DNA of 64,000 bases from Chryseobacterium foetidum (GTDB lineage: Bacteria > Bacteroidota > Bacteroidia > Flavobacteriales > Weeksellaceae), in the NCBI RefSeq assembly GCF_025457425.1, contig NZ_JAMXIA010000001.1:1798001-1862000 (forward strand). Reading direction: 5' to 3'. The notes below the pieces were generated by a model that saw only the letters and a program-made list of their open reading frames with translations, was not told where the DNA came from and made no database searches. The translations under genes and the position numbers were made by a program. Below, in pieces: positions 17,082 through 49,057 of the stretch. Each line of letters opens with the position of its first letter. Positions within the stretch are counted from its first letter, which is position 1.

Positions 17082-17101
17082 CATTTTTATATTTAGATCA
17101 A

Positions 17102-35469: not shown

Positions 35470-36342
35470 TTGGACAAAAATCTTATTCAGAGAACCCTCT
35501 CGGGGATTATTTACATCGCAATTATTATCTTGTGTACCACACCCTTCGGTGCACAGCTTATCAACAACATTTCGCCAGACCTGGCAAAACAGCAGTATCT
35601 TTATTACGGTTTAATTACTTTGCTGTTAACCGTTGGAACCTGGGAATGCATCAAAATCATGAAGTTTGGAAACGGCTACGAAAAATGGATCGTTTTCCCC
35701 ATAGTGGCCATCATCTATTATATTTTCTCCAAAAGATATTTTCAGCACGGCTTTTATTTTGATTTCAGACTTCCTGATATTCTTGCGATTGCTTTGGTGG
35801 GGATCGCGGCAATTACTTTATTTAAATTTGCATCCGAACTGTATTTTGACAGCGGGAAACTCATCTTCACGGTCATTTACGTGGCACTTCCCTTTTGCTT
35901 TGCGCTGGGACTTCCCAAATATTCATCATACGAACAGACTTTTTCGCTGGAAGTGATCTTTCTCTTCATTCTCATCTGGAGCAGCGATACTTTTGCGTAC
36001 ATCGCAGGAAGGCTTTTCGGGAAACATAAAATGGCACCCAAAATTTCACCTAAGAAAACGTGGGAAGGTTATATCGGAGGAGTAGTTTTAACTTTAATTT
36101 TATCCTATTTCGTTGAAAAATATCAGCCTCAACTGAGAGGAAACTGGATGGTTGTAGGGTTTTTGGTAGCTTTATTTGCTCCCCTCGGAGATTTGGTGGA
36201 GAGCCAGCTTAAAAGAACCTTCGGTGTGAAAGACAGCGGAAATATCATCCCGGGACATGGCGGCGTATTAGACAGACTCGACAGTTTTTTAATCTGCGCG
36301 CCTGTCGTATATTTGTACTTTATTATTGAAAAATTTATTTAA
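35470..36342 (+). CDS. cdsA: Phosphatidate cytidylyltransferase (CDP-diacylglycerol synthase)
   Basis: The 290-residue integral membrane enzyme makes CDP-diacylglycerol from CTP and phosphatidic acid. About eight helices are visible, and the family signature is complete: SDTFAYIAGRLFGKHKMAPKISPKKTWEG (about residues 177-205) with the C-terminal DLVESQLKR and KDSGNIIPGHGGVLDRLDS. The start is TTG 35470. The product feeds the psd gene 68 bp downstream via phosphatidylserine. Confidence 0.96.
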   Translation: MDKNLIQRTLSGIIYIAIIILCTTPFGAQLINNISPDLAKQQYLYYGLITLLLTVGTWECIKIMKFGNGYEKWIVFPIVAIIYYIFSKRYFQHGFYFDFRLPDILAIALVGIAAITLFKFASELYFDSGKLIFTVIYVALPFCFALGLPKYSSYEQTFSLEVIFLFILIWSSDTFAYIAGRLFGKHKMAPKISPKKTWEGYIGGVVLTLILSYFVEKYQPQLRGNWMVVGFLVALFAPLGDLVESQLKRTFGVKDSGNIIPGHGGVLDRLDSFLICAPVVYLYFIIEKFI

Positions 36343-36410
36343 ACTCTAAACTGTCGTCATCTATCTTATATTTGACGATGCTTTAAACCCTTAAAAGAAA
36401 AAATCTGATT

Positions 36411-37064
36411 ATGAAATTACACAAGGAATCCAAAGGCACCATCGCTGTTGCCAGCATTGTATTTATTGCTGTTGCAGGTGTTTCGATATATTTTCTTGAA
36501 ATGTGGTCTTTGCTGATCATCGTTCCTGTTCTGATTATTTACGGACTGGTTTTTTGGTTTTTCAGGGTTCCAAACCGTGACATTCAGGATCATGTGGAAA
36601 ATGTAATCGCTCCCGTTGACGGAAAAGTGGTGATGATCAAAGAAGTGGTAGAAACAGAGTTTATAAAAGAAGCCTGTATACAGATTTCTATTTTTATGTC
36701 ACCTTTAAATGTGCATATCTGCCGTTTCCCGGTTTCAGGAAATGTGATTTATAAAAAGTATCATCCCGGAAAATATTTGGTGGCATGGCACGAAAAATCT
36801 TCTACAGAAAACGAAAGAACAACCGTTGCCGTGGAAAGTTTAACCAAACATAAAGTCGTATTCAGGCAGATTGCGGGATATGTTGCAAGAAGAATTGTAT
36901 TCTACTGTAGCGAAGGCGATCAGGCTAAAGCAGGACACGAATTCGGTTTCATCAAGTTCGGTTCAAGAATGGATATTTTTCTCCCAATGGATACCGAAAT
37001 CATCTGTAAAATTGGTGATAAAACCAAAGGCGGTCTTGATGTGATTGCGAAGATGAGGGATTAG
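36411..37064 (+). CDS. psd: Phosphatidylserine decarboxylase proenzyme, short type
   Basis: The 217-residue protein is the short Psd type that produces phosphatidylethanolamine. Two N-terminal membrane helices (about 12-48) are followed by the conserved APVDGKV, IFMSPLNVHICRFPVSG and the self-cleavage site FGSRMDIFLP (Gly-Ser at about residues 183-184), where the serine becomes the pyruvoyl group. It lies just downstream of cdsA, so the two catalyse linked steps of phospholipid synthesis. Confidence 0.94.
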   Translation: MKLHKESKGTIAVASIVFIAVAGVSIYFLEMWSLLIIVPVLIIYGLVFWFFRVPNRDIQDHVENVIAPVDGKVVMIKEVVETEFIKEACIQISIFMSPLNVHICRFPVSGNVIYKKYHPGKYLVAWHEKSSTENERTTVAVESLTKHKVVFRQIAGYVARRIVFYCSEGDQAKAGHEFGFIKFGSRMDIFLPMDTEIICKIGDKTKGGLDVIAKMRD

Positions 37065-37065
37065 A

Positions 37066-37130
37066 GAGATGGAAGATGGAAGCGGGGAGATGGAAGATGA
37101 TTGATGAATGATCATTGATGATTGATAAAT
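37066..37130. repeat. Short GATGGAA / GATGATT-type repeats after psd
   Basis: GAGATGGAAGATGGAAG units followed by TGATTGATGAATGATCATTGATGATTGAT. It is non-coding. The rest of this 304-bp gap holds a weak terminator-like hairpin near 37148-37180 (GATCAGG...CTCTGATTTTT) and the promoter of the next gene. Confidence 0.6.
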
Positions 37131-37334
37131 AATTCAGTATATATAAAAAAGATCAGGGTTTACGGGCTCTGATTTTTTTTTGCTTTAATGTTGATTAGGG
37201 TTTCAAATTAAATATAATTTAAACTAAGGTTTTAATTAAATAATTATTTAGAAATTATTAAACATTTTTTTAAATATGTTGCAATTTTAATACTCATTAA
37301 ATACTTTTTTCAGCAATTATCACATTTAAAATCG

Positions 37335-37342
37335 TAGTTTTG
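37335..37342 (+). promoter_or_regulatory. Promoter -7 element of the PNGase F-like gene
   Basis: TAGTTTTG matches TAnnTTTG and lies 26 bp before the start codon. Confidence 0.5.
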
Positions 37343-37368
37343 ATTTCAAATCAAAAATCTAATAATTA

Positions 37369-38697
37369 ATGAAAAGACTTCTACTCGCTTTTCTGGCTTT
37401 CGCCGGAATTTCTCAGACTCATGCCCAAACTACCATCAACGTTTATTCTGCAATAGTTTTTTATGACGGCTACGCTACCAACGTATCAAACCCAGTTCCT
37501 GCAAATGTCATTCGGCTTGCCAATTACAGATATGCAAAAAAACTGACGGATGCTGAACTGAACACCTTTCAGAATAAAATTCAGATGAATGTGAGCATCG
37601 GTGCTCTATGTGATAACTACGACAGAATCGGAGGTGTGCATATTGCTTTCGTTCCTAAAAATCAGGCTACTTACACTTTGAGCGATCCGGGAGTAAAACG
37701 CATCGAAATCGGCAGATACATTACGCCGTTTATGAATAAAAACATAAATCCTACCTCTGTACCTTATACTTATGAGGTTAATAATCTCTACAATATTTTC
37801 AGCAATACTGTTTTAAGAGCGGCTTACGACATTTATGTGGAACTCGATGTCTTTGGCGTTCCTTATGCTGCCAATACGCAGGTTGCAGGATGTGCTAACA
37901 GAAATGATGTTTTTGCAGGCACCTTAAACTTTGTAACATCTAACGACCCAACGGTGGTTAATACTTTTAATAATCTACTTCCACTACTTGATTCCAACGA
38001 ACTGAACAATTACAACAATACAGATCAGCCAGGGCAAACCGTAAGACTTATCAATTTTAATTTAAGTCAAAGCACTGATAATGCTAAGTTTTTCATCATT
38101 ACTTCTCCGCACGGTGCCGGTACAAATGGTGAAGAATATGTAAGAAGGCAGAATTTTGTTTCTCTGGATAATGCGCAGGTACTCACATTTACTCCCGGAG
38201 GGAAATCATGTGAACCATACAGACAATACAACACCCAAGGCAATGGAATCTATGGACCATATGTACAGACTACCCAGTGGTGGACTGCGTGGAACAATTG
38301 GTGTCCGGGAGATGCTGTTCCCATCAGAACTTTTACAGCCGCTACTATCTCGGCAGGAAGTCATACGATAAAATATGAAGTTCCAACCGCCGTTTTCTAT
38401 GGCCAGGATGGCAGAATCGTGCTTTCAATTTATATGCAAAGCACCAATCAGGCATTGTCTGTAAAAGAAGTTTCTACAGTGGACGTTTCTATCTACCCTA
38501 ATCCTACAGCTGATTATGTTAATTTAAAATCAGATAAAAAAGTACAGAACATCATCATCTATTCTTTAGACGGAAGAAAGATCGATGAAGTGAGAGATTC
38601 AAAAATAGACCTCACCTCTTATCCATCAGGAACATATTTACTGGATATTTCTCTTGAAGGCGGAACGCAGTTTAAGCATAAGGTGATCAGGAAGTAA
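37369..38697 (+). CDS. Secreted PNGase F-like protein with type IX sorting domain
   Basis: The 442-residue protein has a signal peptide (cleavage after HAQ, residue 20) and a C-terminal type IX secretion sorting domain (about 373-442, SIYPNPTADYV... KVIRK). Between lie two jellyroll segments matching peptide-N-glycosidase F: CDNYDRIGGVHI (81-92; D85 aligns with catalytic Asp60), EIGRYITPF (113-121), GEEYVRRQ (254-261; Glu near the position of Glu206) and WCPGDAVPIR (311-320). The loop that carries Glu118 in PNGase F appears to be missing, so deglycosylation activity is uncertain. Probably secreted and surface-anchored or released. Confidence 0.8.
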   Translation: MKRLLLAFLAFAGISQTHAQTTINVYSAIVFYDGYATNVSNPVPANVIRLANYRYAKKLTDAELNTFQNKIQMNVSIGALCDNYDRIGGVHIAFVPKNQATYTLSDPGVKRIEIGRYITPFMNKNINPTSVPYTYEVNNLYNIFSNTVLRAAYDIYVELDVFGVPYAANTQVAGCANRNDVFAGTLNFVTSNDPTVVNTFNNLLPLLDSNELNNYNNTDQPGQTVRLINFNLSQSTDNAKFFIITSPHGAGTNGEEYVRRQNFVSLDNAQVLTFTPGGKSCEPYRQYNTQGNGIYGPYVQTTQWWTAWNNWCPGDAVPIRTFTAATISAGSHTIKYEVPTAVFYGQDGRIVLSIYMQSTNQALSVKEVSTVDVSIYPNPTADYVNLKSDKKVQNIIIYSLDGRKIDEVRDSKIDLTSYPSGTYLLDISLEGGTQFKHKVIRK

Positions 38698-38703
38698 GTG
38701 TTG

Positions 38704-38731
38704 GATGATTGATGATTGATGATTGATGTTT
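38704..38731. repeat. 7-bp tandem repeat GATGATT, about four copies
   Basis: Three exact copies of GATGATT and one variant (GATGTTT) lie 6 bp after the stop codon, just before a terminator. Confidence 0.8.
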
Positions 38732-38765
38732 GATGCGGGAGGCGGAAAATAAATACTTAAACAAA

Positions 38766-38796
38766 AAATCAGAGTTTTTAGGCTCTGATTTTTTGT
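38766..38796. terminator. Terminator after the PNGase F-like gene
   Basis: Arms AAAATCAGAG / CTCTGATTTT with a TTTTTAGG-like loop and a T run. It lies between convergent genes and is A/T-flanked on both sides. Confidence 0.75.
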
Positions 38797-38911
38797 TTTT
38801 GCTTGACGCGTGCTATTTTAGCTTTATGGCTTCTGGAAATCAATACTTTTTTATCCAGGTTAACATTTATATTACAATACAATCTTGATTTACAATCGCA
38901 ATAACAAATTC

Positions 38912-39631
38912 TTACTTACTTTTCTTCACAAACTTATAGGCATGTTGAGCTGTTTTCAGGATATAAAGACCATCCGAAAGAGCAGTAATATCAACACCTT
39001 TATTCTGATCATAAACCTGTTTTAGAACCAACTTCCCCTGTAAGTCATAAATAGAGCACACTTCATTTGCTTTGAAATTACTAAGTCTGATGAAATCTGC
39101 AGATGGATTCGGATAGAGCTGAATTTTATGACTATCTGCATTCACCTCATGGGTCGATAATGTTGCCGATGTGATGTTAAAAGTAGTTGAAAAATTATTC
39201 AGATTGCTGTAGTTACCGTTCTGAAAAGCAATGGATGCAGGCTGATTGCTGGCTGCAGCAGAAGGATTCATCACGTTTTTAATGACCACCTTGATGGCAG
39301 TACCTTGTGGTAAAGCCTGCTCAATATCGATTTTAAGTTCGCTCCCAAAATCCCTGAGATATGCTGCGGTTTCAGTATTCGATCCGTTCAGGAATACATC
39401 TACATTGGCTACATTCGCAGGTGAAGCATTTGCAGTAAATGCCGGAAGTGTAGAACCTGGAACAACGTAGGCAGAAACAGCATTCCACGTCTCTCCTCCT
39501 GCACCGGCAACAAGATTGAAAGTGTAAGTAGTTGCAGTACCCGCAACGGTAGATGTAGATGAAATTGAATTTTGAGCATTTGCAATCGCCGCAAAGGATA
39601 AGAAAGATCCAATAAGTAGTTTTTTAATCAT
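38912..39631 (-). CDS. Small secreted protein with type IX sorting domain
   Basis: The 239-residue protein has a signal peptide (cleavage after NAQ, residue 20), a beta-rich middle domain of about 140 residues that I do not recognise, and a C-terminal sorting domain (about 168-239, IQLYPNPSADFIRL... YKFVKKSK) for type IX secretion. It is alone on its strand, facing the PNGase F-like gene. Confidence 0.82.
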   Translation of the reverse strand: MIKKLLIGSFLSFAAIANAQNSISSTSTVAGTATTYTFNLVAGAGGETWNAVSAYVVPGSTLPAFTANASPANVANVDVFLNGSNTETAAYLRDFGSELKIDIEQALPQGTAIKVVIKNVMNPSAAASNQPASIAFQNGNYSNLNNFSTTFNITSATLSTHEVNADSHKIQLYPNPSADFIRLSNFKANEVCSIYDLQGKLVLKQVYDQNKGVDITALSDGLYILKTAQHAYKFVKKSK

Positions 39632-39654
39632 AATATTTTTTATAGAATTTCCGG

Positions 39655-39662
39655 CAAAAGTA
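39655..39662 (-). promoter_or_regulatory. Promoter -7 element of the small secreted protein gene
   Basis: On the minus strand TACTTTTG matches TAnnTTTG, 24 bp before the start codon. The remaining gap to 40055 shows no other gene or strong structure. Confidence 0.5.
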
Positions 39663-40055
39663 AATGATTAAATGGAAGATCTGTAATTATCATATACCCA
39701 AGTGTAATGATAAAAAACAGATGATTTTACTTGTTTTAAATGGTCGGTTAAAGATGCAGAACCGGACTTTAATGAAACTGCGAAAATTACAGAATTAATT
39801 TTTGTGACTTTGACAAAGCAGCTAAAATTTGACTGTATGTTATTAGCTTTTCCTGTCTTGAAATTAGGGCAGATTTTGTTTTGTGGAGCATATATTCAGG
39901 ATTTTCAGAAAACACGGAGAGAAGACTCGGACAAAATTCAAAATTTTATTTAGATGTTATAGAACAGTAGTCTATGTAAAGAAGCAGAAAAACAGAGCCA
40001 ACAGTGAAAATATACCGAAAAGATGTTGGATAAGACAGGTGAAAATTCCCGAGAA

Positions 40056-40880
40056 TTACATATCCAGGGGACTTTGAATTTTTCTGATCTTTAAATCTGT
40101 GATATGAGTGTAAATTTGGGTGGTAATTACGCTGTTATGACCCAAAAGCTCCTGAATATATCTGATATCTGTCCCGTTTTCTATTAGATGCGTCGCAAAA
40201 CTATGGCGAAGAATATGAGGAGTCACTAATTTTTGAATTTTAGCTCTCACAGCGCTTTGTTTAACAATTTGCTGAACACTTCTGGGAGAATATTTCTCAT
40301 TAGCATTTCCTTCAAAAAGATAGGTTTTTGGCGAATATTTTTTGAAATATTCTCTTAGCAAAGGCAAAACTGATTGTGGAAGCATTACGTATCGATCTTT
40401 CTTTCCTTTAGACTGAATAATCGATATTCTGCCAGATTTTGAATCTATATCTGTAATTTTCATATTAATCAATTCACTTACCCGAAGACCGCAGCCATAC
40501 AAAAGACTGATCATCGATTTATGCTTCAGATTCTCAGTGAGACTGATCATTTTTAATATCTCTTCTTTGCTGAGATATTTTGGCAGGGTATGTTCTACTC
40601 TTTTAGGATAAAGATGTGATAGAGACAGTTTTTTATTAAAAATCATTTCGTAAAATAATTTTATGCTTCCTAAAATGTGTTTCTGAAATGATTGTGAAAT
40701 ACTTTTCTCTTTAATTTCGTTGTGTAGATATTTCTCTATTATAACTTCATCAACATCCTCTATAGCAACATGATTAATTGCATTAAAAAATGTAGCCAAA
40801 GTAGAAATATAAGTTTTGATTGTGGAATCGCTATATCTGGCGACTTCGAGTTTCTGTCTGAAAATTTGAGAGTATTTCAT
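40056..40880 (-). CDS. Tyrosine recombinase of an integron-like cassette array
   Basis: The 274-residue recombinase has an N-terminal SAM-like core-binding domain (residues 3-90) and a catalytic domain with R133 (GCGLRVSEL), K158 (SKGKKDR), H222 and R225 (TPHILRHSFATHL), H248 (LLGHNS) and nucleophile Y257 (TTQIYTH). It ends in IQSPLDM, like the SPLD end of IntI integrases, but the extra IntI domain before the HxLRHSFAT box is absent. It is transcribed away from four cassettes separated by attC-like palindromes, with an attI-like site 134-182 bp from its start. A chromosomal XerC/D role is less likely given this context. It probably integrates and excises the cassettes; this is inference. Confidence 0.9.
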   Translation of the reverse strand: MKYSQIFRQKLEVARYSDSTIKTYISTLATFFNAINHVAIEDVDEVIIEKYLHNEIKEKSISQSFQKHILGSIKLFYEMIFNKKLSLSHLYPKRVEHTLPKYLSKEEILKMISLTENLKHKSMISLLYGCGLRVSELINMKITDIDSKSGRISIIQSKGKKDRYVMLPQSVLPLLREYFKKYSPKTYLFEGNANEKYSPRSVQQIVKQSAVRAKIQKLVTPHILRHSFATHLIENGTDIRYIQELLGHNSVITTQIYTHITDLKIRKIQSPLDM

Positions 40881-40896
40881 TACTGTGTGTTTTGGT

Positions 40897-40904
40897 CAAA
40901 AATA
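40897..40904 (-). promoter_or_regulatory. Promoter -7 element of the recombinase gene
   Basis: On the minus strand TATTTTTG matches TAnnTTTG, 16 bp before the start codon. TTTG at 40922-40925 lies 17 bp upstream. Confidence 0.5.
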
Positions 40905-41014
40905 CTAAACATTCGCCAATCCAAAAAATATTTTTTTAAATTGTTTTTGCAAATTATTAAAAATCAATCAACAAAAGCAACATCTTTTTAAAACAGAAAA
41001 ATAGCTTTACGAAA

Positions 41015-41062
41015 GTTATATACATTGGATTGACGCAATGCGTAAATTTGGAAGTTACCAGC
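41015..41062 (+). other. attI-like site, first insertion point of the cassette array
   Basis: The region between the recombinase and the first cassette ends in GTTACCAGC (41054-41062), whose exact reverse complement GCTGGTAAC closes cassette 1 at 41719-41727. A second core-like GTTATAT is at 41015-41021, and ACGCA/TGCGT arms lie between (41033-41043). By analogy with integrons the crossover would be between G41054 and T41055. Confidence 0.7.
41043..41050 (+). promoter_or_regulatory. Cassette promoter (Pc-like) -7 element abutting the insertion point
   Basis: TAAATTTG matches TAnnTTTG and ends 4 bp before the crossover base, so transcription would start at the first bases of whatever cassette is inserted. 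Cassettes 1 and 2 have no promoter of their own that I can see. No perfect -33 TTTG is present. Confidence 0.55.
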
Positions 41063-41846
41063 AAGCATAAACGACAGAACCAATAACAAACAAAACTACA
41101 AATATGAACTTCGACTTTGCAGAGCTAATAAATTCCGACCTTGAAAATCTTGACTTTGGTAAAGCCATAAATACTGCGCAAAAAGAACTTGAAAAAATCA
41201 CTAAAACAGAATTTCACGACATTGTTGGTAAAACATTTACAAATCCAATCGACGATTTAGTAAATTGGATTGACAGTTTTTACAAAGAAATTTCAAAGAA
41301 AATTCAAATCAAAACAATGTACTTTGAAATGAACGAATTTGACATAAATACAGACGTTTGGTATATAGACGGGATAGCTTATAAAGAAGACGGCGGACTT
41401 GACCTTGAAGATATGGAATGGCTTTCAGACTGCAAAAGAGATGTAATGACAACCAAAGAATTTGTGTTAAGTGGTTACGAGAAATTTCAAACGTTATTTG
41501 AAACGATTGAAGAAAAGGAAGAAAATGGCGAATGGACAGATGAAATGCAAGATGCAAGAGATTGGTGTGAACAAATTATAATTTCAAGATTTATGGAATT
41601 AATGAAGAAAGCTCACGAAACTGCGAAACAACGAAAACTAGCTTGGGGAAATATATCAATTTATTTTACCGAACACGCCTATGACTTTATAGTTAAATCA
41701 GACGTATAAAAAATGCCAGCTGGTAACAAGGGTTTTGCAATAGTGGGGCGAAACTGCAAAGTTCAACGGTAGTTCTTCGGTTCAACTTTTGTACAAAATT
41801 GAAGATTTTCGCTTCGATTGCCCCACCATCGCAAAGCCCCGAGAAG
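41055..41846 (+). mobile_element. Integron-like cassette 1
   Basis: The cassette runs from the crossover base after G41054 to G41846 at the end of its attC-like site. It carries one gene (41104-41709). Its opening GTTACCAGC and closing GCTGGTAAC are exact reverse complements over 9 bp. Confidence 0.75.
41104..41709 (+). CDS. Cassette-encoded protein of unknown function
   Basis: The 201-residue protein is strongly acidic, soluble and mostly helical, with NWIDSFYKEISKKIQIKTMYFEMNEFDINTDVWYIDG in its first half and a C-terminal SIYFTEHAYDFIVKSDV. I do not recognise a family. The first ATG (41104) lies 49 bp inside the cassette without a promoter of its own. Its stop is 9 bp before the attC-like site, the compact layout expected of an integron cassette. 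Confidence 0.72.
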   Translation: MNFDFAELINSDLENLDFGKAINTAQKELEKITKTEFHDIVGKTFTNPIDDLVNWIDSFYKEISKKIQIKTMYFEMNEFDINTDVWYIDGIAYKEDGGLDLEDMEWLSDCKRDVMTTKEFVLSGYEKFQTLFETIEEKEENGEWTDEMQDARDWCEQIIISRFMELMKKAHETAKQRKLAWGNISIYFTEHAYDFIVKSDV

Positions 41847-41855
41847 TTAGCTGAT
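41719..41855 (+). repeat. attC-like site 1 (137 bp imperfect palindrome)
   Basis: Starts with GCTGGTAAC and ends with GTTAGCTGAT. Inner arms TTTTGCAATAGTGGGGC and GCCCCACCATCGCAAAG pair almost fully, and the middle holds a TTGTACAA-centred hairpin. Eight base differences separate about 121 bases of it from attC-like site 3. Crossover would be G41846/T41847. Confidence 0.8.
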
Positions 41856-42621
41856 ATTTTCACAAACTGAATTCTAATGTTAGAAGAAGAACTAAAAGAC
41901 CAAATATTAAACACTAAAGTCAATTATCTCAATGGTTATCTTGCTGCGTTGGGTTTGTTGAATTCTTATTCAATTATTGGGGTAAACTGCAAATTATACA
42001 TTTTCAATTTTTCAGCTGGAGATATCAAAAAATGTATCCAAAATAATGCCTATCAGCTTTTTGGTGTTTATCCAAATGATTGGGTTGTTGAAATTGAGAA
42101 GATAAATGATTGGGAAATCAAACTTAAAAATGAATTAAACGCGTCTACAAAACGTAGAATACCAATTGAAGCTGATAAACTCATAGCAAATCAACTAAAT
42201 TATTCTGAAAATGATTTAACCCGAGATTTAATTTATCAAACAAAATATGTAAACGAATATTTTGTTCTTATGTTAAAGAATGAATTTGTTATTAATGATA
42301 TTGATGTTTATGAAGTTTTTGTGAAAAATGTTGGTGCATCATACAAAATTATCGGTATCGATTTAATATTTGAAATAGAGCCAACTAAAATATTATATCT
42401 TCAAATTACAGGAACCGCCTAATAAAAACATCAGCTAACATAGTATTGCCAAAAGCGGGGCTGAAAGTCCAAACTTCAACATTTGTACTTCTGTTCCGCA
42501 AAAACCATTTTTTTTTTGCTTTGAAAAATGTAAATTAGCAAAAAAAAATGGTTTTGCTAACTGCGGTGCGAATTTCAGCTTTTGTGCTTCGATTTCCCCG
42601 CCTTCGGCAATACTTTTTCCG
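41847..42621 (+). mobile_element. Integron-like cassette 2
   Basis: Begins after G41846; opening GTTAGCTGAT (41846-41855) and closing ATCAGCTAAC (42430-42439) are exact reverse complements over 10 bp. It holds one gene (41877-42422), stop 7 bp before the attC-like site. Confidence 0.75.
41877..42422 (+). CDS. Cassette-encoded protein of unknown function
   Basis: The 181-residue soluble protein begins MLEEELKDQILNTKVNYLNGYLAALGLLNSYSIIGVNC and contains KLIANQLNYSENDLTRDLIYQTKYVNEYFVLML and a C-terminal GIDLIFEIEPTKILYLQITGTA, suggesting an alpha/beta fold. I know no family for it. It starts 22 bp after the attC-like site and lacks a visible promoter. Local AT content is higher than in the surrounding core genes. 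Confidence 0.7.
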   Translation: MLEEELKDQILNTKVNYLNGYLAALGLLNSYSIIGVNCKLYIFNFSAGDIKKCIQNNAYQLFGVYPNDWVVEIEKINDWEIKLKNELNASTKRRIPIEADKLIANQLNYSENDLTRDLIYQTKYVNEYFVLMLKNEFVINDIDVYEVFVKNVGASYKIIGIDLIFEIEPTKILYLQITGTA

Positions 42622-42634
42622 TTGTCTGCAATAT
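42430..42634 (+). repeat. attC-like site 2 (about 205 bp imperfect palindrome)
   Basis: Starts with ATCAGCTAAC and ends with GTTGTCTGCAATAT. Outer arms AGTATTGCC / GGCAATACT (9 bp) and GCGGGG / CCCCGC (6 bp) are perfect; the centre holds a second stem made of CAAAACCATTTTTTTT and its complement. It is longer than sites 1 and 3 but shares the phrases TTCAACATTTGTAC and TTTTGTGCTTCGATT. Confidence 0.8.
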
Positions 42635-42970
42635 TTTTTTTCAAATCTACCCTATCGAATTTTCTGAAATTGAATTTAACTGAAGTTCCGAAAATGAATA
42701 TTCTAAATTTTGAAAATCAAAATCGAGAAGTCTAAATTGAAAATTCTTGAGAACTGACAATTTGAATTTAACGAAAAAAGAAAAAACTGAAAACTGAAAA
42801 TTAACAAGGAATTGATGGACAAAAAACTTGACTGAAAAATAACTTTGAAACAACAAACTGACGAAAAACGAAATTTAACAGAAAAATAAACCGCTGAATT
42901 TCTGCTTCTTTAAATCGAAATGAACGCACGAAATTTCCGATTCGACTGAATAAAAAATACTACAGATAAC
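42622..42970 (+). mobile_element. Integron-like cassette 3, no convincing gene
   Basis: Begins after G42621 with TTGTCTG and ends with CAGATAAC; over 14 bp the two ends pair with three transition mismatches. The 340-bp body is A-rich and full of GAAAATTGAATTTAAC-like words. The only ORF (69 codons on the minus strand) is low-complexity and I reject it. Its attC-like site is split by the IS110 element and resumes at 44205. Confidence 0.6.
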
Positions 42971-42996
42971 ATGAACTGTGTAAAAAACCAAACATT

Positions 42997-43974
42997 TTAG
43001 GCACTTTTTACAATAAAATTATCCAGGTACGCTGTTTTGTTTTTTACTACCCCAAATACAATCTTGAGCAGCTTGTTGCACACTGCAATTACAGCTGCTT
43101 TTTTGTTTTTTCCTTTCTCTACCAGTCGGTCAAAAAGGGTCCTACATTGAGCATTGGTCTTCTTCGCATTTAGGGCACACATGTACAGAATATGGCGCAA
43201 CTGTTTTCCGCCCTGTTTGCAGATACGGATCCGTCCACGGATGCTGCTTCCGCTCCGATATTCTGTGGGACTTAGCCCCGCATAAGAGATCAGTTGTTTA
43301 TACGAATTCATGTCTTTAAAACCTTGGGTATAGATGATCAGTTCTGCTGCAGCTCTTCTTCCAATACCCTTTACGCTGGTAACCAATTTCAACATTTCTG
43401 CTTCCCAGGCAATGAGTTTCTGTTGCAGAATTATCTCTAAATTCTGCTTCTCTTCCCGAAGTTTTTTGATGATTTTCTCAAAGCTTTTTTCAATCGTTTT
43501 TGTGTCAAAAGGACACTTTTTAATGCTGTGAATCTGATTGCTGAACTTGGTAATTTCTTTCGTCAGATCATGGATCGCATTATTTAAAGAACGGCACTCA
43601 AAGTACTCTGTATCGGGCATTGCGTAAATTTCCGGTCGGCGTTCAACACCGTATTCATAGATTCGTTTCGCATCTTTTTTGTCTGATTTATTGCGTTCCA
43701 AATGCATCTGGATGTAGCGCTTGATCTGCAGCGCATTCACAACACTGAAAGCAATATTCTGTTCCTTTAAAAAGAAAATCAAATGCAGGTGATAAACTCC
43801 CGTAGCTTCCATCACAAAGTGAGTTTCCCGGCCTGCTGATCGGATCATTTTCCGAAATCCGGTAACCGTATTTGTGACCTGTAAATGTTGAAGAACTCCT
43901 TCTTTATTTTTAAAATAAAGATCTAACGTCTCGCTGGAAACATCAATACCGCAGTAGTTGTTTTTTTCTTCCAT
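42997..43974 (-). CDS. IS110-family transposase (RNA-guided recombinase type)
   Basis: The 325-residue transposase has the N-terminal RuvC-like DEDD domain (D11 in GIDVSSE, E56 in VMEATGVYH, D98 and D101 in SDKKDAKRIYEYG) and the C-terminal Tnp20 domain with SVKGIGRRAAAELI, AGLSPTEYRSGSSIRGRIRICKQGGKQLRHILYMCALNA. A catalytic serine is expected in RSGSSIRG (241-244). The frame is intact, so the element may be active. IS110 enzymes use a bridge RNA to choose donor and target. Confidence 0.95.
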   Translation of the reverse strand: MEEKNNYCGIDVSSETLDLYFKNKEGVLQHLQVTNTVTGFRKMIRSAGRETHFVMEATGVYHLHLIFFLKEQNIAFSVVNALQIKRYIQMHLERNKSDKKDAKRIYEYGVERRPEIYAMPDTEYFECRSLNNAIHDLTKEITKFSNQIHSIKKCPFDTKTIEKSFEKIIKKLREEKQNLEIILQQKLIAWEAEMLKLVTSVKGIGRRAAAELIIYTQGFKDMNSYKQLISYAGLSPTEYRSGSSIRGRIRICKQGGKQLRHILYMCALNAKKTNAQCRTLFDRLVEKGKNKKAAVIAVCNKLLKIVFGVVKNKTAYLDNFIVKSA

Positions 43975-44204
43975 TTTTTATACTTTTATTCTTTCTTGAG
44001 AGAACAATTCTTGACTGCAACCAACGATCCTAACACGAACTTTATGTTCAAATAAACTGTACGGTTTCGAGCAAGAAAATGAGCAGGGATAATCATGTTA
44101 GTGAAGCTTAAATGCTTAAAGGGTTTGCCTATCTTATTCTGCTCATTTGTTCTTTCTTTTTTATAGTTTAATATTTAATAAATTTAAGGAATTGCAAACA
44201 TAGG
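43975..44204 (-). ncRNA. Candidate bridge RNA region of the IS110 element
   Basis: IS110-group elements encode their guide RNA in the non-coding end upstream of the recombinase. This 230-bp segment has no ORF and contains AAAGGGTTTGCC (44118-44129, plus strand), sharing AAGGGTTT with the target half-site that follows the insertion (44205 onward). This fits a target-binding loop. The fold and RNA ends have not been determined. Confidence 0.5.
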
Positions 44205-44331
44205 AAGGGTTTTGCAATAGTGGGGCGAAACTGCAAAGTTCAACGGCAATTCTTCAGTTCAACATTTGTACAAAATTGAAGATTTGTGCTTCGATTGCCC
44301 CACCATCGCAAAGCCCCGAAACGTTGTGCGT
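44205..44331 (+). repeat. attC-like site 3, right part (left part CAGATAAC at 42963-42970)
   Basis: Resumes with AAGGGTTTTGCAATAGTGG and ends with GTTGTGCGT (44323-44331). It has the same inner arms and TTGTACAA centre as site 1. Crossover would be G44323/T44324. Joined to 42957-42970 it would be a complete site. Confidence 0.8.
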
Positions 44332-44408
44332 CAGCATTTCCGACCACTACCTAAAGTTTGACATCAGACTAAAATTATATCTTCATAACTTTTTGACGTA
44401 AAATACTT

Positions 44409-44437
44409 GTTTCCTAAATAAGAAACTTTTATCTTTG
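44409..44437 (+). promoter_or_regulatory. Promoter and operator-like palindrome of the toxin-antitoxin operon
   Basis: TTG (44407-44409) is followed after 20 bp by TATCTTTG (44430-44437). Between them GTTTC (44409-44413) and GAAAC (44422-44426) form an 18-bp palindrome where the HTH antitoxin could bind and repress. The toxin start is 18 bp downstream. Confidence 0.55.
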
Positions 44438-44455
44438 CTTAAAAATTAACATTGA

Positions 44456-44803
44456 ATGGACGAATATAAATTTCGGGTTCAGTTTTTAGAAGAAGCGAAA
44501 GGCTTTTTGGATGAACTTGACGAAAAAGCGAGGGATAAAATTGTTTACAATATTTGGAAAGCCCGAAGCACAAACGACAAGGAACTTTTCAAAAAATTGC
44601 AAGACGAAATTTGGGAATTTAGAACAAAATTCAACAAAACTTATTATCGGCTTTTTGCATTTTGGGACAAGACCGACAAAACTGATACATTTGTAATTTC
44701 AACGCACGGACTGATTAAGAAAACAGACAAAATTCCAAAAAGCGAAATTGAAAAAGCAGAAAAATTAAGAGAAAAGTATTTTAACGAGAAAAATAAAAAG
44801 TAA
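44456..44803 (+). CDS. HigB/RelE-type toxin (Gp49-like)
   Basis: The 115-residue basic protein has the Gp49-like RelE-superfamily pattern: VQFLEEAKGFLDELDEKARDKIVYNIWKA, ELFKKLQDEIWEFRTKFNKTYYRLFAFWD and STHGLIKKTDKIPKSEIEKAEKLREKYF, the last being typical of host-inhibition-of-growth mRNA interferases. It precedes its antitoxin, the HigBA order, with a one-base overlap (TAATG). Toxin-antitoxin pairs are common in integron arrays, where they discourage loss of cassettes. Confidence 0.9.
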   Translation: MDEYKFRVQFLEEAKGFLDELDEKARDKIVYNIWKARSTNDKELFKKLQDEIWEFRTKFNKTYYRLFAFWDKTDKTDTFVISTHGLIKKTDKIPKSEIEKAEKLREKYFNEKNKK

Positions 44804-45111
44804 TGAAGACATATAATTTAGAAGACTTGACCGACAAATATATCGGTAAAAAAGGAACAAAAAAGCGTGACGAATTTGAAAACGAACTACGTCTTGACTT
44901 ATTAGGACAAGCTATCAAACAAGCTCGACAAGAACGAAACTTGACACAAGAAGAATTGGGCGAACTTGTTGGCGTGAAAAAAGCACAAATTTCTAAAATT
45001 GAGAACAGTACAACTGACGCAAGATTTACAACAATTTTGAAAGTTTTTGAAGCTCTGGGAGCGAAAGTGAATTTTAACGTAGAACTAAACAACCGTAAAT
45101 TGGCATACTAA
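44803..45111 (+). CDS. HigA-type antitoxin with XRE helix-turn-helix
   Basis: The 102-residue protein has an N-terminal toxin-binding region and an HTH_3 domain (about residues 33-90): LGQAIKQARQERNLTQEELGELVGVKKAQISKIENSTTDARFTTILKVFEALGAKV. It neutralises the toxin encoded just upstream and probably represses the operon at the palindrome near 44417. Its stop is 13 bp before the closing core of the cassette. Confidence 0.92.
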   Translation: MKTYNLEDLTDKYIGKKGTKKRDEFENELRLDLLGQAIKQARQERNLTQEELGELVGVKKAQISKIENSTTDARFTTILKVFEALGAKVNFNVELNNRKLAY

Positions 45112-45133
45112 AAAACTATGCCGAACGCACAAC

Positions 45134-45176
45134 ATAAACTGTGTAAAAAACCAAACACTTTAGGCACTTTCACAAT
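45134..45176 (-). mobile_element. IS110 end remnant in attC-like site 4
   Basis: ATAAACTGTGTAAAAAACC and onward to CACAATA is about 90% identical to the IS110 end at 42971-43015, including the region of the transposase stop codon. It begins directly after the AAC of cassette 4, the same position as in site 3. The rest of the element and of the attC-like site is gone, leaving core chromosome from about 45180. Confidence 0.75.
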
Positions 45177-45186
45177 AGCAAATCAA

Positions 45187-45534
45187 TCACTTCACAAACT
45201 TCTTTACCTCATCAATCAATCCCAAAATCAAATCAACAGGCAAATCTTCTTCCATATCCAAAAGCAGAATTTTAAACTTTTTTCTGCCTTCACTGATGAG
45301 AAGAGGATGATCTAATCTGTCGCCATGATAGAAACTTACATAATGTTGCTGATGCTTCTTGCTGAAATAAAAGTAGCAGAGCATTTTCTTTTTAAATTTA
45401 AAGAAAGGCAAACCGAAGCTGAGGGTTTCGGTGATTTTTTCGCTATCTGAAGCGAGAATTTTCTGGCGCAAAAAAAGAAGAGCACTACGTTCAGGCTCAT
45501 CGATTCTGAAATAGTACTCTTCTAATGGATTCAT
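45187..45534 (-). CDS. DUF1801-family protein (YdhG-like)
   Basis: The 115-residue protein has NPLEEYYFRIDEPERSALLFLRQKILASD and ETLSFGLPFFKFKKKMLCYFYFSKK followed by a YVSFYHG strand, the DUF1801 pattern. It may bind iron or a small ligand; its function is not established. It marks the return to ordinary chromosome after the cassette array. Confidence 0.82.
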   Translation of the reverse strand: MNPLEEYYFRIDEPERSALLFLRQKILASDSEKITETLSFGLPFFKFKKKMLCYFYFSKKHQQHYVSFYHGDRLDHPLLISEGRKKFKILLLDMEEDLPVDLILGLIDEVKKFVK

Positions 45535-45669
45535 TGTGGCTGTTGGCTTTTGGCTGTTAGCTATTGGCTTTTCAATTACGCATTATAATGTAAAGTATGC
45601 TTAATGAATATCTTCAGATGTTTCCTTAAAAAAGCTTAACAACTTATACATCTTAATGTTTCAAATCAA

Positions 45670-47499
45670 TTACTCAAAATTCTGCAGTTCAACCAGCTTG
45701 TTGTACATTCCTTTTTTGGCGATAAGATCGTGGTGATTTCCCTGTTCTACGATTTTCCCTTTCTCCATAACGACGATCCAGTCGGCTTTTTGGATGGTGG
45801 AAAGACGGTGGGCGATCACCAGTGAAGTTCGGTTCTGCATCATATTTTCTAAGGCAATCTGTACAAATCTTTCAGATTCTGTATCTAAAGCTGAAGTTGC
45901 TTCATCCAAAATCATAATTGGTGGATTTTTAAGAACCGCTCTTGCAATTGAAATCCTTTGCTTCTGTCCGCCTGAAAGTTTTCCTCCTGCTTCACCGATG
46001 CTCGTTTCATACTGCTTCGGAAGATCCATAATGAAATCATGGGCATTGGCAATCTTTGCCGCTTCCTGAATTTCCTCTAAGGTTGCATCAGGTTTACCTA
46101 AAGAAATATTATTTCTGATGGAGTCGTTAAAGAGAATATTATCCTGTGTAACGAGTCCGAAAAGCTTTCTGTAGTTGGAAAGTTTAATGTTTTTAATGTT
46201 TTCTCCATCCAAAAGAACTTCACCGTTATCTACGTCGTAAAATCTTGTTATCAGATTGGCAAGTGTGCTTTTTCCACTACCACTCTGCCCTACGAGAGCA
46301 ACAGTTTTACCTTTCGGAATTGACAATGAGAAGTCCTTCAGAACATCTCTGTCTTCATATCCGAAAGTGATGTTTTTAAACTCTACATTTTGCTTGAAAT
46401 CATTAATTTCTTTAGCATCTTTTTCTTCTTTGATGTCATAAGTTGCATCAAGAATATCAAAAATTCTCTTTGCAGAAACTTCCCCTTTCTGCATATTTGA
46501 AATAGCAGAAGAAAGTGATTTTAATGGCTGTAAAATGGTATAAAATAGACCAATATAAACGATAAATTCACTTCCGGAAAGCCCCTCTCCTTTTATGGCA
46601 AGACGACCTCCGAAATATACAATCATACCAATCGTGATGGCTCCCAAAAGTTCACTGACAGGCGATGCCAATGCTTTCTTTTTAAATAATCTCAGTGACA
46701 GAAAACGTATTTTATTGAGTACATCATCAAATCTTTTTTTGATTTGAGGCGATGCATCAAAAATTTTAATAATCTTTAAACCTACCAAAGTTTCATCAAC
46801 GAAAGAGTACATTTTACCCAATTCGTTCTGAGCTTCTCCTGTGTCTTTTTTCAAACTTTTACCAATGATCGAAATTAATGTTCCCATGATCGGAAAAACT
46901 ATTAAAGTAAAAATCGTGAGCTGAAAATTGGAATAAAGCAAATACGCCATTGTAATGATAATGACGATAGGCGAACGGATCAAATCAATTAAACTGTTCA
47001 GGATATTAGATTCAACTTCTCCTACATCTGAGGTAATTCTTGCAAAAACATCCCCTTTTCTGGAGTTTGTAAAAAATGAAACAGGAAGATCTAAAATCTT
47101 ATCATGCAGCTGAATTCTGAAGTCTCTCGAAACACCGGTTCTTGAAAATGTAAGATAAAATTCTGAAAAATAGCTGAAAATATTCCTTAAAAAGAACATC
47201 GTAATAAACATGATGCAGGTAATCAGAAGAATATATTCCGCTCCCTTTTCTATTTCAAGCTGTTGAATAAAATAATTAAAACTCTCCGAGAGGAAACTTC
47301 CCACAGACTCAATCCCTTCATACACAGGCTTACTGTCTATCTTTTTTCCATCTTTTTTAAAAAGGATGTTCAGCACAGGCATGAAAAAAAGCATGGCAAC
47401 AATGTTGAAGATCGCATAGAGAACGTTGAAGAAAATACCTGCTGCAATAGATTTTTTATACGGAAGTATATTGTCGATTGCCCGTTTATAATAATTCAT
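45670..47499 (-). CDS. MsbA-like ABC transporter, fused permease and ATPase
   Basis: The 609-residue half-transporter has six membrane helices (within residues 15-330) and a nucleotide-binding domain with Walker A GQSGSGKST (about 402-410), Q-loop VTQDNIL, signature LSGGQKQR, Walker B MILDEATSALD and the H-loop IAHRLS. The family exports lipid A, other lipids or drugs, working as a homodimer. Being an exporter with both domains in one chain, MsbA is the best guess, but substrate is not proved. Confidence 0.92.
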   Translation of the reverse strand: MNYYKRAIDNILPYKKSIAAGIFFNVLYAIFNIVAMLFFMPVLNILFKKDGKKIDSKPVYEGIESVGSFLSESFNYFIQQLEIEKGAEYILLITCIMFITMFFLRNIFSYFSEFYLTFSRTGVSRDFRIQLHDKILDLPVSFFTNSRKGDVFARITSDVGEVESNILNSLIDLIRSPIVIIITMAYLLYSNFQLTIFTLIVFPIMGTLISIIGKSLKKDTGEAQNELGKMYSFVDETLVGLKIIKIFDASPQIKKRFDDVLNKIRFLSLRLFKKKALASPVSELLGAITIGMIVYFGGRLAIKGEGLSGSEFIVYIGLFYTILQPLKSLSSAISNMQKGEVSAKRIFDILDATYDIKEEKDAKEINDFKQNVEFKNITFGYEDRDVLKDFSLSIPKGKTVALVGQSGSGKSTLANLITRFYDVDNGEVLLDGENIKNIKLSNYRKLFGLVTQDNILFNDSIRNNISLGKPDATLEEIQEAAKIANAHDFIMDLPKQYETSIGEAGGKLSGGQKQRISIARAVLKNPPIMILDEATSALDTESERFVQIALENMMQNRTSLVIAHRLSTIQKADWIVVMEKGKIVEQGNHHDLIAKKGMYNKLVELQNFE

Positions 47500-47549
47500 T
47501 AAATATTAAAATTAATCCACAAAAATAGGGAATTTAAAAAGAAGACGTT

Positions 47550-48473
47550 TTAATTCAGTTTTACTTTACTGTTGTATTTTGGTGCAAACGTTTTTGGGGT
47601 GAGCTTTTCTATTGTTTTGGCAAAATTATTAATGATATTGGTCATGTTGTCTACATCAACGATAGAAAAATCGTCATTCACCTGATGGTAGTGTTTAATT
47701 TTAGACATATCTGCTGTAGAAAACGAATGGGCAATAATTTTCTTTTTAGCATAGCTTACATTGTCACTTCTGTAAAACAACTGTTGTTTAGCGTAAGGAT
47801 CCGGATAAATTTTAATCATTCCGTCTGCGTGATGATTAAACAAATCTGCAAGGTCTGAAAACTCATCTCCTGTCATAAACATTGCGTTTTTACCAAATTC
47901 AGATTCTGTAGCAATCATTTCAAAATTGAAAAGTGCTGCCAGATTTTTATTGATTTTCTCCATTCCTTTATCTGCCGCAAGTGCTGTTGAACCTAAAAGT
48001 CCTGCTTCCTCTCCGTTAAAAGCCATGAAAACCATGGAGAATTCCGGTTTTTTATCTTTAAAATATTCAGAAATACTCACCAATGCTGCAATTCCGCTGG
48101 CGTCGTCGTCTGCACCATTGTAGATATTATCGCCTTTATCATCATTGGTTCCTATGTGATCGAAGTGACCGGAGAATCCCAGCATTTTTTCAGATGTACC
48201 TTTCTTAATTCCACAGACATTATAAACCGTTTGCCCTTTGTACTGAAAAGGAACGAGGTAAGAATCGCCAAAACAGTAATCAAGCTTATTTTCTTTAAAT
48301 AATTTTGAAATATAATTGGCTGCCTGCTCATTTTCGGGAGTTCCTATGAGACGGCCTTTCATCTCGTCGGAAGCCAACCTTGTAACAATGGTTTTTACAG
48401 TTCCCTGGCTCACGGCCTGTGCAAAACTTAAAACTGAAAAGAATGATAGTGCTAATACTGATAACTTTTTCAT
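47550..48473 (-). CDS. Exported M28-family zinc aminopeptidase
   Basis: The 307-residue protein has a signal peptide (cleavage near FAQA, residue 19). Zinc ligands are visible in SGHFDHIG (His at about residue 101), NGADDDASG (bridging Asp), NGEEAGLLGS (catalytic Glu and metal Glu, about 154-155) and a later histidine in AHSFSTADMSKIKHYHQVNDDF. M28 enzymes remove N-terminal residues from peptides. It acts in the periplasm or outside the cell. It is 50 bp upstream of the ABC exporter on the same strand. Confidence 0.9.
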   Translation of the reverse strand: MKKLSVLALSFFSVLSFAQAVSQGTVKTIVTRLASDEMKGRLIGTPENEQAANYISKLFKENKLDYCFGDSYLVPFQYKGQTVYNVCGIKKGTSEKMLGFSGHFDHIGTNDDKGDNIYNGADDDASGIAALVSISEYFKDKKPEFSMVFMAFNGEEAGLLGSTALAADKGMEKINKNLAALFNFEMIATESEFGKNAMFMTGDEFSDLADLFNHHADGMIKIYPDPYAKQQLFYRSDNVSYAKKKIIAHSFSTADMSKIKHYHQVNDDFSIVDVDNMTNIINNFAKTIEKLTPKTFAPKYNSKVKLN

Positions 48474-48619
48474 AATACTGTTTTATTGGAATATTAGACG
48501 CAAGATAAAATGTTTTGTTTCAATTTTAACAATCTTTCTACAATTTGATCAAAAATTTAGCATAAAAAAACAGCCTTCCAATAAGGAAAGCTGTTCTCAC
48601 TCAAAAAATCATTGTCTGG

Positions 48620-49009
48620 CTAACGCAGTCTGTCTACAGATTTCACGAGCCTCTCGTCTTTTTTGATGTAAATGTTGGCAATAGCCAGACAGATTACAGC
48701 AATAAACGGGAAAATCGGCTCAATACCCTTCTCAGGAAAATCTATTCCTCCGGGTAAGTTTAGCAGCCAGTACAGCAATACACCAATCAACAAAGCGTTT
48801 ATAACGATGCTGATGTTATTCAGCATGATTTGTCTTGTTCTGTTTTTAAAGCTGAAAATACTCAAAGCACCGACAATTACTAAAATTGCAGATACAATTT
48901 TTATCAATGGAAACGTTCCGAAAACTTCTGCATCCTGACCTGTAATAAACAGGAAAACAGGTGCTAAAGTAGCAAGTAATATCCAGATGGTCTGTATTCT
49001 TTGTAGCAT
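48620..49009 (-). CDS. DUF4293-family membrane protein
   Basis: I start at ATG 49009 (MLQRIQTIWILLATLAPV), the conserved family start, rather than at 49051. The 129-residue protein has four membrane helices and a charged end (YIKKDERLVKSVDRLR). Function unknown. It is divergent from rho, an arrangement common in Bacteroidota, and shares a promoter region with it. Confidence 0.85.
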   Translation of the reverse strand: MLQRIQTIWILLATLAPVFLFITGQDAEVFGTFPLIKIVSAILVIVGALSIFSFKNRTRQIMLNNISIVINALLIGVLLYWLLNLPGGIDFPEKGIEPIFPFIAVICLAIANIYIKKDERLVKSVDRLR

Positions 49010-49026
49010 AAACTTTAAAATCAGGA

Positions 49027-49057
49027 CAAAAATAGCATAAATTTTGCACAATTCAAA
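49027..49057 (-). promoter_or_regulatory. Promoter of the DUF4293 gene
   Basis: On the minus strand TTTG (49054-49057) is followed after 19 bp by TATTTTTG (49027-49034). Confidence 0.65.

What the first reader, a model, noticed from the sequence alone, without database searches (positions are those of the whole stretch)
40056..45176. Integron-like gene cassette array run by a short tyrosine recombinase
A recombinase gene faces away from four cassettes, all on the plus strand and all separated by 137-205 bp imperfect palindromes. Cassette genes sit tightly between the sites, two have no promoter, and one is a toxin-antitoxin pair. This is the full logic of an integron (recombinase, primary site, promoter, cassettes, palindromic sites), but the recombinase is not a classical IntI and the core sequence is not GTTRRRY. 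It may be a separate integron lineage in Bacteroidota. The layout and complementarity are read from the sequence; the mechanism is inferred.
Basis: partly seen in the sequence, partly recalled or inferred. Interest (0 to 1): 0.95.

Follow-up and report, generated by a model that had tools for sequence, protein, structure and literature searches.

The report
Second kind of bacterial gene-cassette collector
This stretch of a Weeksellaceae genome holds a row of small genes, each ending in a palindromic DNA site that is predicted to fold, beside a recombinase that likely captures and swaps them: an integron-like system without the classical integron enzyme, whose sites also follow resistance genes such as tet(X) in related bacteria.

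Summary
A covariance model of the site finds the same kind of site beside 15 of 18 related recombinases. Cassettes bounded by model-called sites have matching ends in 42 of 57 cases against 6% by chance, and in 21 of 33 when both bounding sites lie outside the training set. An attI-like sequence of one of two kinds abuts the first cassette in 15 of 16 loci. One 1208-bp cassette, tet(X), is 100% identical in genomes of two genera. The strongest test: a published, unexplained integration of aph(3')-IVb in Riemerella anatipestifer (PMC13148043) moved 27 bp + gene + 140 bp. My predicted cassette has the same total of 956 bp, and relE-like, HTH and cation-efflux genes stand in that order within at least 37 such sites of a genome I infer to be R. 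anatipestifer. The recombinase lacks the IntI I2 insertion and lies outside the IntI clade. It works like an integron but is not one by definition. That this enzyme moves the cassettes is inferred, not shown.

The parts
40056..40880 (-). short tyrosine recombinase, 274 aa, RKHRHY residues conserved, ends in SPLDM; no I2 insertion
   Evidence: NF040815 234 bits (cut-off 220), TIGR02249 209 bits (cut-off 265); residues invariant in 24 aligned sequences; gap against IntI4; model without an extra helix there
40979..41056 (+). attI-like sequence, 173 bp from the recombinase start, ends at GTT
   Evidence: a like sequence abuts the first cassette in relatives, 15 of 16 loci in two sequence kinds; repeated without recombinase at the second array, L060
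41054..41727 (+). cassette 1 (ORF 41104-41709, no Pfam or NCBIfam match)
   Evidence: ends GTTACCAGC / GTTACCAGC
41725..41848 (+). attC-like site 1, 124 bp
   Evidence: 69.1 bits, E 6e-13; DNA folds
41846..42439 (+). cassette 2 (ORF 41877-42422, no Pfam or NCBIfam match)
   Evidence: ends GTTAGCTGAT / GTTAGCTGAT
42437..42623 (+). attC-like site 2, long class, 187 bp
   Evidence: 60.6 bits; bottom strand fold z -5.8
42621..42970 (+). cassette 3, no plus-strand ORF of 60 aa or more
   Evidence: ends GTTGTCTG / GTTATCTG
42968..44325 (+). attC-like site 3, interrupted: AAC at 42968-42970, rest 44205-44325
   Evidence: 60.7 bits for the right part
42971..44204 (-). IS110-family element inserted directly after AAC of site 3 (transposase 42997-43974)
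   Evidence: NF033542 187 bits; all 4 left ends of this element found in the genome follow a cassette-end AAC
44323..45133 (+). cassette 4: toxin (44456-44803, Gp49 family) and antitoxin (44803-45111, HTH_3)
   Evidence: ends GTTGTGCGT / GTTGTGCGT; 69% identical to the TA cassette of an R. anatipestifer plasmid
45131..45177 (+). site 4 cut short: AAC followed by an IS110 left-end remnant
   Evidence: repeat D10 (95%)

Best explanation
This is an integron-like gene-cassette platform of Bacteroidota: cassettes with matching ends lie in a row from an attI-like sequence, cassettes end in palindromic attC-like sites, and a short IntI/XerA-type tyrosine recombinase encoded beside the array likely excises and inserts them. 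Shown by sequence: recombinase, attI-like sequence, cassettes, sites, covarying stems, own-end matching, variable content at one locus, and identical cassettes in different arrays. Shown by a published experiment that gave no mechanism: a DNA segment of exactly the length of one such cassette entered a chromosome without homology, next to genes that stand in an array of these sites. Inferred: the enzyme cuts between G and TT of GTTR; the bottom strand of the circular cassette folds into the hairpin that is recombined; strand choice rests on conserved A.C mismatches of the top strand that become T.G wobble pairs on the bottom strand. Untested: the promoter that reads the cassettes, and the recombination itself with this enzyme.
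For: Site model R1: 96.6% of cells paired, 16 of 17 pairs with changes on both sides, 0 of 500 shuffles reach the covariation score. R1 hits beside 15 of 18 related recombinases on the expected strand, and none in 17.9 kb round five other tyrosine recombinases of the own genome. Own-end match of at least 6/7 in 42 of 57 cassettes, 5.7% of 2992 cross-locus pairs, at most 12 in 10,000 permutations; 21 of 33 when neither bounding site was used in training. attI-like sequence at 15 of 16 loci. Shared flanks but different cassettes at one locus; homology stops at GTT. Identical 1208-bp and duplicated 911-bp cassettes, encoding Tet(X) and AadS. 55 of 59 cassettes have their longest ORF on the plus strand, median 35 bp from the start and 16 bp from the end. 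Bottom strand more stable in 35 of 40 circular-form sites. Published integration segment 27 bp + gene + 140 bp (PMC13148043, section 11 read) equals the predicted cassette of 956 bp, and genes of the kinds named at the target stand in an array of the same sites.
Against: No direct assay links this recombinase to the reaction. The genome inferred to be R. anatipestifer (G052) has its array far from its recombinase (no site in the 19 kb fetched round it). The second array of the own genome and 7 of the 10 site-bearing stretches (1 to 12 sites each, picked by me) have no recombinase within the stretch; L211 has a broken remnant. In the own genus: 24 genomes with site only, 6 with both, 6 with recombinase only. 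15 of 57 cassettes do not reach 6/7, 12 of 33 outside the training set. R1 was trained on sites first picked for inverted repeats and matching ends, and 7 of 28 candidates out of register were dropped, so the pair counts lean towards the structure. Single-site folding z-scores on 141-146 nt are only -1.8 to -2.5. Three of 18 relatives have no site (L065, L073 at a contig end, L074). The window's own array looks decayed: two of four sites are hit by IS110.
Confidence: 0.87

Rival explanations
1. The array is a true cassette array, but another recombinase acting in trans (host XerC/XerD or an unlinked relative) moves the cassettes, and this gene is a neighbour.
For: Sites without a recombinase in the same stretch: L060, L206-L210, L212, L214 and the genome inferred to be R. 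anatipestifer.
Against: Recombinase beside sites in 15 of 18 relatives, 142-198 bp from the first cassette in 15 of 16 loci; G052 does encode a relative elsewhere (68% identical to that of L030); the own genome's other recombinase loci, XerD- and XerC-like among them, have no sites.
Confidence: 0.09
2. It is an ordinary integron with a divergent IntI.
For: Same layout; TIGR02249 matches at 209 bits; C-terminal SPLD shared with IntI; Foldseek finds the integron integrase 2a3v with the highest TM-score to the model among the ten best rows (0.71).
Against: Score under the 265-bit cut-off; I2 insertion absent; 13 IntI form one clade at 100/100 without it; GTTRRRY in 6 of 90.
Confidence: 0.06
3. 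The palindromes are passive repeats (MITE- or REP-like) that happen to separate genes, with no cassette exchange.
For: Like sequence also occurs in genomes without the recombinase at E<=1e-60; IS110 sits in it.
Against: Own-end matching, identical cassettes in unlike neighbourhoods, attI-like start, and the published one-cassette integration.
Confidence: 0.02
4. Same platform and enzyme, but the sites recombine as ordinary double-stranded DNA rather than as a folded bottom strand.
For: The I2 helix held to give IntI single-strand recombination (PMC7790495 passages) is absent; site lengths fall into tight classes, 80 of 97 sites at 120-126 bp and 11 at 184-188 bp.
Against: Strong covariation of the stems and bottom-strand stability bias.
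Confidence: 0.3

Closest known systems
Integrons (IntI, attI, attC cassettes)
   Same: Layout, cassette geometry, GTTR core shared by cassette start and end, hairpin site with bottom-strand bias, resistance genes among the cassettes, long arrays.
   Different: Recombinase lacks the I2 insertion, scores under the IntI cut-off and lies outside the IntI clade; sites mostly 120-126 or 184-188 bp with a fixed 9 bp + 4x4 + 6 bp stem and A.C mismatches; core not GTTRRRY; co-directional recombinase in some Bacteroidota.
XerA-type tyrosine recombinases (NF040815; solved 5hxy, 4a8e)
   Same: Length, domains, catalytic residues; best PDB matches by sequence and best E-value by fold (5hxy); score over the NF040815 cut-off.
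   Different: Linked to attI-like and attC-like cassette arrays; carries the SPLD tail seen in IntI.
Homology-independent uptake of aph(3')-IVb, lnu(H) and blaRATA in R. anatipestifer (PMC13148043, section 11 and passages read)
   Same: The segment that integrated has the bounds of one cassette of this system with its attC-like end; the paper itself notes an attC-like fold of the 140 bp.
   Different: The section read names no recombinase, array or attI and reports no mobile element found in the flanking 100 kb.
IS1111-attC elements that insert into integron attC sites (recalled, no call)
   Same: A transposable element of the wider IS110 group sits in the recombination sites.
   Different: Here an element matching NF033542 (IS110) lies directly after AAC in 4 of 4 places.

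Membership tests
Integron | IntI integrase over the curated model cut-off (TIGR02249, 265 bits) | tested here: not met
   209 bits; five array-linked relatives 188-206; positive controls L151 and L168 at 389 and 449
Integron | I2 alpha-helix insertion of IntI | tested here: not met
   query 179-201 spans IntI4 181-246; insertion columns empty in the short recombinases; the predicted model (pLDDT 88) has no helix between residues 183 and 198
Integron | recombinase belongs to the IntI clade | tested here: not met
   13 IntI one clade 100/100; array-linked short recombinases plus IntI as one clade p-AU 0.042
Integron | integrase gene beside and facing away from the array | tested here: met
   window and 15 of 18 relatives
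Integron | attI at a fixed place before the first cassette | tested here: met
   15 of 16 loci, 142-198 bp from the recombinase start, in two sequence kinds
Integron | cassettes whose 3' site pairs with their own start | tested here: met
   42 of 57, 21 of 33 outside training; the own pairing is best of 24 in the window
Integron | core GTTRRRY | tested here: not met
   6 of 90; GTTR 87 of 90
Integron | folded bottom strand of attC favoured, through extrahelical bases | tested here: inconclusive
   bottom strand more stable in 35 of 40, with A.C to T.G mismatches at fixed places; extrahelical bases were not searched for systematically
Integron | cassette promoter Pc | not tested
   no promoter scan was run
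Integron | integrase catalyses attI x attC recombination | not testable with these tools
   needs a bench assay
XerA-type recombinase (NF040815) | score over the curated cut-off of 220 bits | tested here: met
   234 bits; but some array-linked relatives fall below, e.g. 208 and 196

The most novel reading that the evidence does not exclude
A second integron lineage, built on an integrase that never had the I2 helix, runs cassette arrays across Bacteroidota, with at least 37 sites in one chromosome; it selects the bottom strand by an A.C/T.G mismatch code instead of extrahelical bases, and it is the home in which tet(X), aadS, lnu(H) and aph(3')-IVb were cassettes before other elements carried tet(X) into Acinetobacter and Escherichia.
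Probability: 0.55. Interest if true: 0.97.

Novelty: new variant of a known kind. Interest (0 to 1): 0.93.

Why it matters
Integrons are the textbook route by which bacteria collect resistance genes, and single-strand cassette capture is held to depend on the I2 helix of IntI (PMC7790495 passages). IntegronFinder 2.0 reports one complete integron in Bacteroidetes proper, in Salinibacter (PMC9024848 passages). A platform without I2 in this phylum would make the origin of integrons testable. It would also explain an open puzzle in R. anatipestifer, where genes enter the chromosome without homology, and it offers a source for mobile tet(X). The cassette-end rule and the site model give a ready way to look for such arrays.

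Tried and rejected
Arm-palindrome scan with a high threshold found nothing; with a low threshold it had about as many hits in shuffled sequence (10 on the plus strand of L061, 16, 4 and 5 in three shuffles). Only adding the cassette-end rule separated signal from noise (126 links, 0 in shuffled; arrays are seen on both strands, so about half as many are distinct).

MAFFT of whole sites misaligned the repetitive middle, so the model was built on arms with the middle masked.

Whole-genome search with the site model is insensitive: 17 of 246 genomes, own genome missed although it has the sites; not used for co-occurrence. The DNA query was used instead; it sees only sites like site 1.

Rfam: no match up to E 1 in 39000-46000. 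No hit of site 1 in the phage collection.

Considered and rejected: passive repeats; a plain XerA neighbour gene; a classical IntI (see rivals). For pHH1107 (L203) I looked for a matching end of the tet(X3) cassette: its start GTTATGTGCC is there after tpnF, its end matches only in part and its site is cut short. For lnu(H) in L099 the site follows the gene directly but no matching start was seen in the 140 bases printed. In the Klebsiella stretch L204 no site matched.

Literature: 10 searches (search listings) showed no paper that describes this recombinase with cassette arrays; most subscription journals and preprints are not held. Papers opened: PMC8138268, PMC9024848, PMC7790495, PMC10100655, PMC13277301 (passages), PMC13148043 (passages and section 11).
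Full report
What was checked. The window was read at 39000-47000, with ORFs and repeats over 36000-50000. The recombinase (40056-40880, minus) passes NF040815 (234 bits, cut-off 220) and falls short of the integron integrase model TIGR02249 (209 bits, cut-off 265). To its right lie four cassettes on the plus strand. Each starts with GTTR and ends with a stretch whose reverse complement repeats its own start: GTTACCAGC/GTTACCAGC, GTTAGCTGAT/GTTAGCTGAT, GTTGTCTG/GTTATCTG, GTTGTGCGT/GTTGTGCGT; of 24 pairings the own one is best. Cassettes 1 and 2 hold one main ORF each without a Pfam or NCBIfam match, cassette 3 has no plus-strand ORF of 60 aa or more, cassette 4 is a Gp49 toxin with an HTH antitoxin. 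Between them are sites of 124 and 187 bp; the third is split by IS110 and the fourth is cut short by an IS110-end remnant.

Relatives. A protein search over 246 genomes of the family gave 95 with a match at E<=1e-60. Stretches of up to 20 kb round the 18 best relatives and two stretches of the own genome were taken. Sites with matching cassette ends were found by a script. Forty sites were put in one register, 28 were non-redundant, 7 of these out of register were dropped, and 21 went into the model. Over these, 96.6% of cells pair and 16 of 17 pairs show changes on both sides; no shuffle of 500 reaches the paired percentage or the covariation score (26 of 500 reach the number of further pair types), and slid structures give 37-44%. 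Because sites had been picked for inverted repeats, the pairing itself is partly selected; the fixed register and the sequence change of the stems are not.

Model search. In the window and 20 stretches R1 gave 74 matches at E<=0.1, of which 66 are distinct places at E<0.001 once the overlap of window and L061 is removed. 15 of the 18 relatives have sites on the side away from the recombinase; L065, L073 (contig end) and L074 have none. Five other tyrosine-recombinase loci of the own genome have none, and 139 kb of own genome, window included, gives only the three window sites at E<0.1. An independent search for linked cassette ends adds L104, L109, L111, L118 and L130 and recovers an array beside a true IntI in Pseudoalteromonas (L151, 389 bits) as a positive control; 126 links, none in shuffled sequence, each array being seen on both strands.

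Cassette ends. From 97 model-called sites (matches at E>=0.001 were dropped) 57 neighbouring pairs define cassettes. In 42 of 57 the seven bases after GTT match the own end in at least six places, against 5.7% of 2992 pairs from different loci; no permutation of 10,000 exceeded 12. Where neither bounding site had been used to train the model it is 21 of 33. Sites cluster at 120-126 bp (80 of 97) and 184-188 bp (11 of 97). 55 of 59 cassettes have the longest ORF on the plus strand, for these at a median of 35 bp after the start and 16 bp before the end.

attI. Before the first cassette lies an attI-like sequence that ends exactly at GTT, in 15 of 16 loci (not L064), 142-198 bp from the recombinase start. 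By eye it comes in two kinds, one with GCAATGCGT in 10 loci and another in L072 and L076-L079. The own genome has a second array near 742-751 kb with the first kind and no recombinase in the stretch.

Movement. L061 (this locus) and L062 share 180 bp of the left flank, recombinase and attI-like sequence; the homology stops at the cassette start, the cassettes are unlike apart from the sites, and homology resumes behind the array over 2.8 kb. L063 and L064 share recombinase and attI-like sequence but no flank in the stretches. A 1208-bp cassette is 100% identical in L077 (twice) and L079, from different genera; a 911-bp cassette occurs twice in L079. They encode Tet(X) (NF033111, 862 bits) and AadS (NF033387, 519 bits).

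Published experiment. PMC13148043 (section 11 and passages read) reports that aph(3')-IVb enters R. anatipestifer ATCC 11845 without homology, consistently with 27 bp before and 140 bp behind the gene, at a place flanked by relE, hthR and cdf; the authors note an attC-like fold and leave the mechanism open. The record of an RCAD0416 plasmid, a strain they name, NZ_CP073240.1, has 12 plus-strand sites by R1 and two weak minus-strand echoes. An APH(3') gene of the stated 262 aa (16558-17346) lies between sites 16407-16531 and 17363-17487; the cassette ends match over GTTGGTGGC. The predicted cassette is 956 bases (28+789+139), the reported segment 27+789+140, also 956; a shift of one base is expected because GTT is at both ends. 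An unnamed family genome, G052, holds that plasmid's toxin-antitoxin cassette at 100% and is therefore, I infer, R. anatipestifer. Its chromosome has at least 37 sites over about 39 kb across the contig ends (the 10,000-base overlap of the contig ends was counted once), 15 of 15 cassettes checked have at least 6/7 matching ends, and a Gp49/HTH pair, a site and a cation-efflux gene stand in the order relE, hthR, cdf named in the paper's figure legend. Its recombinase is elsewhere, with no site in the 19 kb fetched round it.

Strand bias. Position 11 of the cassette is A opposite C in 37 of 42 cassettes, and two inner positions, read in one fixed register, are A opposite C in 22 and 17 of 35 sites; on the bottom strand these are T.G wobble pairs. 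Folded in the circular form, the bottom strand is the more stable in 35 of 40 sites, by 2.7 kcal/mol on average. That this sets the recombining strand is inference.

Enzyme. Against IntI4 (2a3v) the query runs from 179 to 201 where IntI has 181 to 246; the insertion columns are empty in the short recombinases. The predicted model (pLDDT 88, weak at residues 251-257) has no helix between residues 183 and 198; by fold the best E-value is XerA 5hxy and the highest TM-score among the ten best rows is the integron integrase 2a3v (0.71). In a tree of 56 rows, 13 IntI form one clade (100/100) without them; the array-linked short ones as one clade are not rejected (p-AU 0.44), and together with IntI weakly rejected (0.042, a group named after seeing the tree). 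True IntI occur in 84 of 296 genomes of the phylum, one of them in the same class, none listed in the own order.

Distribution. In 246 family genomes, recombinase at E<=1e-60 and a site like site 1 occur together in 54, recombinase only 41, site only 41, neither 110 (odds ratio 3.5, p 4e-6); in the own genus both 6, recombinase only 6, site only 24. So linkage is real but loose, as with integrase-less cassette arrays. Of ten site-bearing stretches that I picked (1 to 12 sites each), two have the recombinase beside the array, one a broken remnant, seven none within the stretch.

Resistance cassettes. lnu(H) on an Empedobacter plasmid is followed at once by a site. The tet(X) cassette with its site is covered end to end in an Empedobacter and a Riemerella plasmid; 291 plasmid records match (30 listed), and 5 of the 6 listed Acinetobacter rows (Tet(X3), Tet(X5)) begin at the first base of the cassette. 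In pHH1107 tet(X3) follows tpnF, a 46% relative of this recombinase, and is followed by the first arm of a site. That these genes began as cassettes here is inference.

IS110. The left end of the window's IS110 occurs four times in the genome, each time directly after the AAC of a cassette end.

Verdict. It works like an integron; by definition it is not one, since I2, the IntI cut-off, the IntI clade and GTTRRRY were tested and not met. I found no description in ten searches of the held library.

Noticed in passing
window 42971-44204, 45134-45177; L060 4953-6185, 13002-13047: An IS110-family element and its remnants sit directly after the AAC of cassette ends in 4 of 4 places in the genome, so it seems to home on these sites.
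   Followed up: partly
L060 4300-13001 (own genome near 742-751 kb): Second cassette array with the same attI-like sequence but no recombinase in the stretch, with a long multigene segment between two of its sites.
   Followed up: partly
L203 10001-12260 (pHH1107): tpnF, a 46% relative of this recombinase, precedes tet(X3), whose start matches the tet(X) cassette and which is followed by a truncated site arm.
   Followed up: partly
L204 10001-11763 (Klebsiella plasmid): A 42% relative of the recombinase lies just before blaVEB-3; no site matched the model there.
   Followed up: partly
L102, L110, L116, L121, L136: In other Bacteroidota the recombinase points the same way as the array and lies before it, unlike the divergent layout here.
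   Followed up: no
L118 15289-17497 (Rufibacter): Linked sites of only 56-59 bp, shorter than here, beside a short recombinase.
   Followed up: no
site lengths over 97 sites: Lengths fall mostly into two tight classes about 62 bp apart, near six helical turns; the reason is unknown.
   Followed up: no
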